NCBI GenBank assembly: GCA_016290615.1
Contig: JAEEUS010000005.1
Location: 50,265 to 114,264, forward strand
Source: Lachnospiraceae bacterium
Lineage (GTDB): Bacteria; Bacillota; Clostridia; Lachnospirales; Lachnospiraceae
Length of the DNA: 64,000 nt
Reading direction: 5' to 3'
This document shows, piece by piece, positions 53,281 through 54,755 of the stretch (positions are counted from its first letter, which is position 1; each line of letters opens with the position of its first letter). A program made the position numbers and the translations under genes. Below the pieces are notes generated by a model. The model had not been told where the DNA came from. It did no database searches and saw only the letters and a program-made list of their open reading frames with translations.

Positions 53281-53366
53281 GTATTGAATGCTCTGATCTA
53301 ACAGGATTACAATTTTTATAGTATATGATAAAATGATCTCAGAATAGTTATCAAGGAGGTATAAGG

Positions 53367-53405
53367 ATGATACGCTGCGAAGTAACAGCTCCATGCAGAG
53401 CTTGA
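53367..53405 (+). CDS. Putative regulatory leader peptide MIRCEVTAPCRA
   Basis: Full AAGGAGGT SD (53353-53360), ATG 53367, 12 sense codons + TGA; followed by alternative hairpins ahead of an MFS gene. Confidence 0.7.
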   Translation: MIRCEVTAPCRA

Positions 53406-53476
53406 GGAGACTGTATGGAGGAAAATGATTTTCCTCAGGCTTTGCTCACAGAAATTCTATAGATTTAGGAGCAAAG
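53387..53476 (+). promoter_or_regulatory. Putative translational attenuator of the MFS gene
   Basis: Competing stems: AGCTC/GAGCT (53387-53391/53398-53402); GCAGAGCTTGAGGA/TCCTCAGGCTTTGC (53395-53408/53432-53445, 14 pairs, two wobbles); GAGGAAAA/TTTTCCTC (53418-53425/53429-53436); CTTTGCTC/GAGCAAAG (53440-53447/53469-53476), the last covering the MFS SD. Confidence 0.72.
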
Positions 53477-53480
53477 AAAA

Positions 53481-54755
53481 ATGAATAAGAAAAATGAATT
53501 AAAAGAATTTTATATACTTTGGAGTACTCAAAGCCTGTCTCAGCTAGGAAGTGCCATTACTGCATTTGCACTTACATTATGGCTGTATGAGAAGACAGGT
53601 TCGGCACTCAGTACAGCTGCGTTAAGGATATGTACATACGCACCTTACGTTATAATGAGTATATTTGCCGGTGCATTATCAGATAAATTTGATAAGAAGA
53701 AGACTATGCTTATATGCGATCTAATGGCGGCACTTACTACGGTAATGGTTTTTGTATTGTACAAAACAGATATGCTCTGTGTTTGGCATCTTTATCTGAT
53801 CAATGCTTTTTCCGGTCTGATGAATACTGTTCAGCAGCCGGCTTCGGAAGTTGCCTATACTATGGTCATACCTAAGGCGCATTATCAGAAAACGAGCGGA
53901 CTTCAATCATTATCAAGATCGCTGATAACAATAGGCAATCCACTGATTGCAGCAGCAATATACGGACTTGCCGGTTTGGATGCTGCAATAGCCGCTGACT
54001 TGATAACATTTGCGATAGCTTTTTTAGGGCTTGCGCTATTTATCAGGATACCTGAAATACCTAAGAAGAATGAGGACGAAGAAAATGTTCTCAAACTGGC
54101 AAAGGAAGGGTTGGTGTTCCTGAAAGAGAATCCGATGATCTTGTATGTCATCCTGTTTATGGCGGGCGTGAACCTTATTGCATCCGCATTTGACGCGGTT
54201 CTTCCTGCACTTATTATTCCGAATCCGCGAGGTGGAAACAGTGTACTCGGTATCGTGACATCATGTTCAGGGATAGCGATGATCGCAGGAAGCCTTATCG
54301 CAACGGTTATGCCAAAGCCTAAGGACAGAGTCAGGGTTATATACCTGTCGATGCTTTTTTCACTGGCGACTGAGAATTATCTGCTTGCATTTTCAAGTAA
54401 TCCGTTGCTGTGGTGCCTTGGTCAGATACTCGGATGGATATTTGTTCCGGTTATGAGTGCGAACCAAAATGTTATCATGAGAAATTCCATACCTGCAAGA
54501 TTGCAGGGTAGAGTATATGCCTGCAGGAACACACTTCAGTTCTTTACTATTCCGATAGGATTGCTGATAGGTGGTTTTATGGTGGATGAAGTATGTGAGC
54601 CTGTAATGAAAGATAGCGGCAGGATCATGCAGATACTGTTTGGAAGTCAGAAAGGTTCGGGTGCGGCACTTATGATGTTCATCCTGGGTGTTGCAGGAAC
54701 CGTGATGTGTCTTGTGTTTGGCCATAAACTGAAAAAGTATAATTATTCTGATTAA
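53481..54755 (+). CDS. MFS transporter, Mef/enterobactin-exporter-like
   Basis: ILWSTQSLSQLGSAITAFALTLWLYEKTGSALSTAAL, SDKFDKKKTMLICDL; 12-TM pattern. Confidence 0.9.
   Translation: MNKKNELKEFYILWSTQSLSQLGSAITAFALTLWLYEKTGSALSTAALRICTYAPYVIMSIFAGALSDKFDKKKTMLICDLMAALTTVMVFVLYKTDMLCVWHLYLINAFSGLMNTVQQPASEVAYTMVIPKAHYQKTSGLQSLSRSLITIGNPLIAAAIYGLAGLDAAIAADLITFAIAFLGLALFIRIPEIPKKNEDEENVLKLAKEGLVFLKENPMILYVILFMAGVNLIASAFDAVLPALIIPNPRGGNSVLGIVTSCSGIAMIAGSLIATVMPKPKDRVRVIYLSMLFSLATENYLLAFSSNPLLWCLGQILGWIFVPVMSANQNVIMRNSIPARLQGRVYACRNTLQFFTIPIGLLIGGFMVDEVCEPVMKDSGRIMQILFGSQKGSGAALMMFILGVAGTVMCLVFGHKLKKYNYSD

What the first reader, a model, noticed from the sequence alone, without database searches (positions are those of the whole stretch)
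53353..53481. Leader-peptide attenuator candidate controlling a Mef-like MFS transporter
A near-perfect SD (AAGGAGGT) drives a 12-codon ORF, MIRCEVTAPCRA*, that ends 75 nt before the MFS ATG. The leader's 3' end including its stop (53395-53408, extendable to 53410) can pair over 14 consecutive positions, two of them wobbles, with 53432-53445. That strand alternatively forms a local hairpin (GAGGAAAA-TGA-TTTTCCTC), which leaves CTTTGCTC (53440-53447) free to pair perfectly with GAGCAAAG (53469-53476), covering the MFS SD. Inferred logic: a ribosome reaching the leader's end blocks the long stem and favours SD sequestration (OFF); a ribosome stalled early in the leader, or absent, allows the long stem and exposes the SD (ON). 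This resembles translational attenuation of erm/cat/mef resistance genes, but I do not recognise the leader sequence. The two Cys and two Arg codons leave amino-acid sensing open as an alternative to drug sensing.
Basis: partly seen in the sequence, partly recalled or inferred. Interest (0 to 1): 0.9.

Follow-up and report, generated by a model that had tools for sequence, protein, structure and literature searches.

The report
Antibiotic-sensing leader peptide before efflux pump
A 12-codon mini-gene and a folding RNA switch in front of an efflux-pump gene form a widely conserved, apparently undescribed on-switch that probably detects ribosome-blocking antibiotics, and the same switch sits in front of several unrelated resistance-type genes in gut and rumen bacteria.

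Summary
Leader, Shine-Dalgarno (SD) sites and pairings are at the stated coordinates and are strongly conserved. More than 90 relatives of the MFS gene (50-95% identity; Bacillota, Treponema, Chloroflexota) carry an in-frame leader, consensus M-x-[L/R]-C-[I/E/S]-[V/A]-x-A-P-C-[R/K]-[A/V]*, with covarying pairings. A covariance model finds the same element before CatA-type acetyltransferases, Cfr rRNA methyltransferases, neutral-ceramidase-like hydrolases and Mor-like small proteins; motif-bearing leaders with another hairpin precede Vat-like acetyltransferases. This is the expected company of a sensor for peptidyl-transferase-centre antibiotics.

Its logic is half right: modelling exposes the MFS SD only when a ribosome sits with codon 5 (or 4) in the P site. 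A ribosome at the leader's end gives OFF, as it said; an absent ribosome is OFF, not ON. Independently, codon 4, the penultimate residue at that stall, is C/T/A/S in 98 of 107 leaders and changes mainly synonymously. This resembles the chloramphenicol context rule (Ala>Ser,Thr at that position). Cys/Arg starvation sensing is disfavoured.

Mechanism class known (translation attenuation, like ermC/cat-86); leader family apparently undescribed. The drug is inferred; nothing was tested experimentally.

The parts
53306..53334 (+). promoter-like site (ATTACA-17-TAAAAT, extended -10), weak
   Evidence: consensus scan only, (4 promoter-like sites found, 1.5 expected from shuffles)
53353..53360 (+). 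Shine-Dalgarno AAGGAGGT of the leader ORF
   Evidence: sequence
53367..53405 (+). leader ORF MIRCEVTAPCRA*
   Evidence: conserved in 107 distinct leaders of the same spacing
53376..53384 (+). codons 4-6 (Cys4 penultimate, Glu5 in P site, Val6 in A site): predicted stall site
   Evidence: codon 4 under peptide-level constraint; SD accessibility peaks with codon 5 in the P site
53389..53398 (+). S1 CTCCATGCAG (codons 8-11), 5' arm of hairpin A
   Evidence: 98.9% paired with S1' in 62 sequences, compensatory changes
53411..53420 (+). S1' CTGTATGGAG, 3' arm of hairpin A
53395..53408 (+). S2 GCAGAGCTTGAGGA, 5' arm of anti-sequestering stem C (includes the leader stop)
   Evidence: 97.1% paired, 15 double-change cells
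53418..53436 (+). local hairpin B GAGGAAAA-TGA-TTTTCCTC
   Evidence: sequence; pair counts; forms when the ribosome is at the leader's end
53432..53445 (+). S3 TCCTCAGGCTTTGC, 3' arm of stem C
53440..53447 (+). S3 part CTTTGCTC, 5' arm of sequestering stem D
53469..53476 (+). S4 GAGCAAAG, overlaps the MFS SD, 3' arm of stem D
   Evidence: 97.4% paired, U-A to C-G compensatory changes
53388..53392 (+). GCTCC, pairs with the MFS SD GGAGC (53468-53472) in the ribosome-free fold
   Evidence: predicted fold only
53481..54755 (+). Mef-like MFS efflux transporter (424 aa), the regulated gene
   Evidence: PF07690, PF05977; NCBIfam MefA 123 bits against cut-off 675 and TIGR00900 194 against 320, so not a Mef

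Best explanation
This is a translational attenuator. In the resting mRNA the SD of the MFS gene is paired (S3:S4, or GCTCC:GGAGC around stem C) and the gene is off; complete translation of the 12-codon leader leaves it off because the ribosome at the leader's end covers S2. When a peptidyl-transferase-centre (PTC) antibiotic, most likely a phenicol or a drug with a similar context rule, stalls the ribosome with codon 5 in the P site and the small residue 4 (Cys/Thr/Ala/Ser) penultimate, the ribosome covers the 5' half of S1. Hairpin A and the GCTCC:SD pairing are then blocked, S2 is left free to take S3 into the 14-bp stem C, the SD is released and the efflux pump is made. Shown here: conservation, covariation, peptide-level selection on codon 4, and presence of the element before other resistance-type genes. 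Inferred: the stalling event, the identity of the drug and the substrate of the pump.
For: (1) Leader present in nearly all of 80+ MFS relatives down to about 50% identity, spacing ATG-to-S1 nearly constant. (2) Covariation in all three stems: 98.9, 97.1 and 97.4% of cells paired, doubly changed cells above all 500 shuffles, slid controls much lower; L071/L101 change S2, S3 and S4 together; Butyrivibrio leaders keep only S1 pairing with an SD-bearing S1', four of them with a different S1 (GCTCCTTTTTC:GAAAAAGGAGC). (3) SD accessibility peaks with codon 5 in the P site in 69 of 83 relatives and codon 4 in 12 of 83, robust for leading edges +13 to +15; the same peak for a CatA leader and for two Mor-like-gene leaders read through S1 in another frame. 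(4) Codon 4: 98 of 107 A/C/S/T, 88% of single-nt differences synonymous against 14% expected. (5) The element precedes CatA, Cfr, ceramidase-like and CD3324-type genes; Vat-like genes carry leaders with the same N-terminus, MKLCIV/MRLCIV, and another hairpin. (6) Published chloramphenicol rule: Ala, less Ser/Thr, at the penultimate position; Lys at -3 potentiates (PMC11832420); leader residue 2 is Arg/Lys in 60 of 107.
Against: No expression, toeprint or MIC data. The accessibility model is equilibrium folding with an assumed footprint and the relatives are not independent. The open-SD probability at codon 5 is modest in the window (0.19), and some relatives (L017, L031, L154, L156) show little or no switch. 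Cys, the commonest residue 4, is not one of the residues named in the chloramphenicol rule, and Glu/Ile in the P site is not its optimum (Asp). The CatA- and Vat-like proteins score below NCBIfam equivalog cut-offs, so their substrates are not certain. Vat and Cfr also cover non-phenicol PTC drugs.
Confidence: 0.75

Rival explanations
1. Same attenuator, but a general sensor of PTC-site inhibitors (lincosamides, streptogramin A, pleuromutilins, oxazolidinones as well as phenicols) with little peptide specificity, like the short uORFs of vmlR, cplR or vga(A).
For: The element family precedes genes against several PTC drug classes (Cfr, Vat-like, CatA; an ABC-F follows two of the Mor-like genes). 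The Cfr and some CD3324 leaders lack the MxLCIV N-terminus.
Against: Codon 4 is under clear peptide-level selection. Stalls at codons 1-2, expected for pleuromutilins and many lincosamides, leave the SD closed in the model.
Confidence: 0.3
2. Amino-acid starvation attenuator sensing Cys or Arg through their leader codons.
For: Two Cys and two Arg codons in the window's leader.
Against: Cys4 to T/A/S/M/I/Y/E/V/N, Cys10 to R/F/Y, Arg2 to I/V/L, Arg3 to L/I/N/M. The codon in the A site at the ON position is V/A/D/G. Neighbouring genes are resistance-type, not Cys/Arg metabolism.
Confidence: 0.03
3. The conserved RNA is a protein- or ligand-binding element or mRNA-stability element, and the ORF is incidental.
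For: S1 is conserved in different reading frames (APCR, SSMQ, LHAK), so part of the conservation is RNA-level.
Against: Leader SD, start, frame and synonymous codon-4 changes are conserved; the MxL[C/T]IV N-terminus persists with a quite different hairpin before Vat-like genes.
Confidence: 0.05
4. Chance ORF and chance complementarity without function.
For: None after the comparative search.
Against: Conservation over three phyla and several gene families; covariance-model matches down to E about 1e-25.
Confidence: 0.01

Closest known systems
Inducible cat leaders (cat-86 / catA, translation attenuation by chloramphenicol)
   Same: Short leader with strong SD; SD of the resistance gene sequestered; predicted stall with codon 5 in the P site as at cat-86 (own knowledge: MVKTD); some relatives of this element precede CatA-type genes and some are two-segment like cat.
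   Different: Leader sequence unrelated (M-x-L-C-I-V against MVKTD); four-segment switch in most members; main target an MFS pump.
ermC-type four-segment translational attenuator
   Same: Segments 1:2 and 3:4 in the off state, 2:3 in the on state, stalled ribosome covers segment 1 (ermC anatomy from own knowledge).
   Different: Segments 1 and 2 overlap each other at the leader's 3' end; no macrolide motif (R/K-x-R/K), no erm gene found downstream.
mef/msr(D) leader of Streptococcus (PMC4335068, PMC10314930)
   Same: Leader-controlled expression of an MFS pump of the same broad family.
   Different: There transcriptional attenuation by macrolides with an RLR-type leader (own knowledge for the motif); here no terminator found and the MFS is far below the Mef cut-offs.
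Clostridial cplR uORF MR[I/M] (PMC10201436)
   Same: Clostridial uORF sensing PTC drugs, SD sequestration.
   Different: Three-codon uORF with terminator; sequence and segments unrelated.
whiB7 and toiL multi-drug uORFs (PMC12121999)
   Same: A uORF that may report several ribosome inhibitors; the CD3324 branch here also controls a putative DNA-binding protein.
   Different: Different phyla, peptides and RNA folds.

Membership tests
Leader-peptide translational attenuators of resistance genes | short translated ORF with SD upstream of the gene on the same mRNA | tested here: met
   SD and ORF present and conserved; transcription and translation not measured
Leader-peptide translational attenuators of resistance genes | downstream SD sequestered in an RNA stem, without terminator | tested here: met
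   stem D 97.4% paired; no terminator-like site
Leader-peptide translational attenuators of resistance genes | alternative pairing that frees the SD when a ribosome stalls in the leader | tested here: met
   codon 5 or 4 is the best codon in 81 of 83 relatives, shuffle control; computed prediction only
Leader-peptide translational attenuators of resistance genes | drug-dependent stalling and induction | not testable with these tools
   needs toeprinting or reporter assay
Mef macrolide efflux proteins | NCBIfam Mef cut-off | tested here: not met
   best 123 bits against 675
Macrolide leaders (R/K-x-R/K arrest motif) | R/K-x-R/K in the leader | tested here: not met
   no such motif in MIRCEVTAPCRA or in the family consensus
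cplR/vmlR-type short uORFs | uORF of 3-4 codons (MR[I/M], MIN, MK[L/Q], MAGN) | tested here: not met
   12-codon leader of other sequence; PMC10201436
Rfam-described riboregulators | match above gathering score | tested here: not met
   none at the locus
Amino-acid (Cys/Arg) attenuators | sensed codons conserved at the stall position | tested here: not met
   codon 6 is V/A/D/G; Cys and Arg codons are replaced

The most novel reading that the evidence does not exclude
A single portable, phylum-crossing attenuator family (leader M-x-L-[C/T/A]-I-[V/A], arrested at codon 5 with a small penultimate residue) is the common PTC-antibiotic sensor of Clostridia and rumen bacteria. It controls a regulon-like set of unrelated resistance genes (MFS pump, CatA, Vat, Cfr, ceramidase-like hydrolases that may cut the amide bond of phenicols, and a Mor-like activator that would act as a whiB7-like relay), and its arrest uses a penultimate cysteine not described before.
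Probability: 0.35. Interest if true: 0.85.

Novelty: new member of a known kind. Interest (0 to 1): 0.66.

Why it matters
The leader marks genes that the bacteria themselves switch on when the ribosome's catalytic centre is poisoned. It therefore flags unannotated resistance determinants (this MFS family, ceramidase-like hydrolases, small Mor-like proteins, esterases) in gut and rumen bacteria and predicts their drug class. It also gives a natural set of more than 100 arrest-peptide candidates that isolates one short motif under peptide-level selection, making the context rule of PTC inhibitors testable.

Tried and rejected
Rfam search at the locus: nothing. Leader DNA in plasmids (blastn): only chance matches. 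Known cfr(B), cfr(C) and cfr plasmid loci and the plasmid CatA of Pusillibacter: no element by R1 at E up to 10, so a link to mobile clinical genes is not shown. Text search for the peptide strings and for leaders of clostridial efflux genes: nothing. The pattern search for SD + M[K/R]-L-x-I-[V/A] found five chance matches inside long ORFs (L201, L205, L208-L210) besides the true leaders. Covariance-model hits L168, L171 and L178 lie inside ORFs and are taken as false. The same accessibility calculation for Vat-like genes gave no switch for L211 and a weak one from codon 5 on for L179. Sequence search of the PDB for the MFS gave nothing; homologues carry only generic names. Amino-acid sensing and macrolide sensing were considered and put aside (see rivals and membership test).

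Full report
WHAT IS THERE. The region folds better than all 200 dinucleotide shuffles. One conserved hairpin was missed: S1 CTCCATGCAG (codons 8-11, 53389-53398) with S1' CTGTATGGAG (53411-53420). The gene is a Mef-like MFS transporter but not a Mef. The window lies in a Lachnospiraceae-type genome (by its named rumen relatives) in which the element occurs once.

CONSERVATION. Two searches brought about 110 loci of MFS relatives. Once loci on the minus strand were turned, nearly all carry an SD-preceded ORF of 11-13 codons that ends in [A/S/T]PC[R/K][A/V]; exceptions are L012, L022, L059, L067, L094 and L110, where no leader was found, L007 (possible ATA start) and L056 (frameshift). Hosts include Lachnospiraceae, Erysipelotrichaceae and Oscillospiraceae bins, Treponema and Chloroflexota; on the protein tree the three phylum labels need three changes, which suggests transfer of gene and switch together, although binned contigs make this uncertain.

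STRUCTURE. On 62 aligned sequences hairpin A (S1:S1') is paired in 98.9% of cells with three pairs changed on both sides; stem C (S2:S3) in 97.1% with 15 doubly changed cells; stem D (S3:S4) in 97.4% with three doubly changed cells. None of 500 shuffles reaches the paired percentages, the doubly changed cells or the covariation scores, and slid partners pair in only about 20-53%. Shuffles do not remove relatedness; but the tree needs ten changes of one S1 pair state (U-A, U-G, C-G). In the Chloroflexota loci L071 and L101, S2 (GCAGGGTTTGAGGA), S3 (TCCTCAAACCCTGC) and S4 (GGAGCAGG) changed together. Butyrivibrio loci have a minimal form in which S1' itself is the SD of the MFS gene (CTCCATGCA..TTTGTATGGAGG), and four have the same arrangement with other letters, GCTCCTTTTTC with GAAAAAGGAGC.

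WHERE THE RIBOSOME MUST STOP. Each leader was folded with a ribosome mask from P-14 to P+15 at every codon, and the probability that all four bases of the SD's GGAG are open was computed. Among 83 relatives this peaks with codon 5 in the P site in 69 and codon 4 in 12; in the free state and at codons 6-12 the median is about zero. In the window: free 0.018, codon 5 0.187, codons 6-12 at most 0.0001. Shifting the leading edge moves the peak by at most one codon: +12 gives 6, +13 to +15 gives 5, +16/+17 gives 4. Two-segment forms mostly open from codon 5 on, so codon 5 is where both architectures agree. Shuffling the leader-to-SD stretch of the window 150 times gave one equal or better switch ratio and none that was as closed when free and as open at codon 5. 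The relatives share ancestry, so the 83 are not independent.

WHICH PART IS PEPTIDE. In 107 distinct leaders of the same spacing, residue 4 is C 82, T 9, A 6, S 1; single-nucleotide differences at codon 4 are 88% synonymous against 14% expected. Codon 6 begins with G in nearly all (V, A, D, G); this is unexplained. Residues 8-11 mainly reflect the RNA: before CD3324-family genes the same S1 is read in another frame (MFLCIVVSSVQRL, MSLTIVVSSMQRL), and before Vat-like genes the N-terminus MKLCIV or MRLCIV is followed by a different hairpin that pairs with the start-codon region. So the N-terminal M-x-L-[C/T/A]-I-[V/A] is the likely sensor.

OTHER GENES UNDER THE SAME SWITCH. The covariance model R1 was trained only on MFS loci. 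Among 394 Clostridia genomes it found 28 matches at E up to 0.001: 23 at MFS genes (one a remnant), three at CatA-type acetyltransferases (L131-L133), one at Cfr (L138, above the Cfr-family cut-offs) and one at a CD3324-family protein (L139). In 149 genomes of another clostridial family 38 had matches at E up to 0.05, before MFS, Cfr (L162, L163), neutral-ceramidase-like hydrolases (L148, L149, L154, L156), CD3324-family proteins, an esterase (L147) and a nucleotidyltransferase-like protein (L200). CD3324 proteins match the Mor activator family and are followed in some loci by an ABC-F protein, a Vat-like acetyltransferase or an rRNA-methyltransferase-like protein. A motif pattern without the hairpin recovered leader loci, among them a new Vat-like one, and five chance matches; its reversed control gave none.

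MECHANISM. No ribosome: SD paired, off. Full translation: S2 covered by the terminating ribosome, S3 pairs with S4, off. Stall with codon 5 in the P site: the ribosome covers the 5' half of S1, S2 takes S3, SD free, on (predicted folds). Chloramphenicol prefers Ala, less Ser/Thr, as penultimate residue, with Lys at -3 helping (PMC11832420). A stall at codon 5 puts the small residue 4 there, and residue 2, which is Arg/Lys in 60 of 107, at -3. Together with CatA, Vat-like and Cfr companions this points to a PTC drug, phenicols first. The inference is not proof: Cys is not among the published residues and no assay was possible.

RELATION TO KNOWN SYSTEMS. It works like ermC (four segments) and cat-86 (early stall). 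It is not a Mef leader, not a macrolide-motif leader and not the cplR MR[I/M] uORF (PMC10201436). No description was found in the papers searched; most subscription papers and all preprints are outside that library.

Noticed in passing
L148, L149, L154, L156 (L192-L194): Neutral-ceramidase-like hydrolases (PF04734 above gathering score for L148) directly under the element. Ceramide and chloramphenicol are both N-acyl 2-amino-1,3-diols, so a phenicol amidase is conceivable.
   Followed up: partly
L139, L157, L158, L161, L164, L166, L167, L169, L170, L172, L173, L175, L177, L180: The element precedes CD3324-family (Mor-like) small proteins, in some loci followed by resistance-type genes (ABC-F, Vat-like, rRNA-methyltransferase-like): a possible whiB7-like relay.
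   Followed up: partly
window 53382 and the family: First base of leader codon 6 is G in nearly all 107 leaders although the encoded residue varies (V/A/D/G); no explanation.
   Followed up: no
L138, L162, L163: Cfr genes carry the RNA segments but a different leader reading frame (..THNRLHAK[S/P]DVLGD..CME*) without a clear SD.
   Followed up: partly
L198: A CatA-type gene under the element is followed by a Vat-like acetyltransferase gene, a possible two-gene resistance operon.
   Followed up: no
L137: Element kept in front of an MFS gene of which only a C-terminal remnant is left.
   Followed up: no
L003 to L028 (genome-search loci): Loci of minus-strand matches from the genome search are given in contig orientation and had to be turned before upstream regions could be read.
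   Followed up: yes
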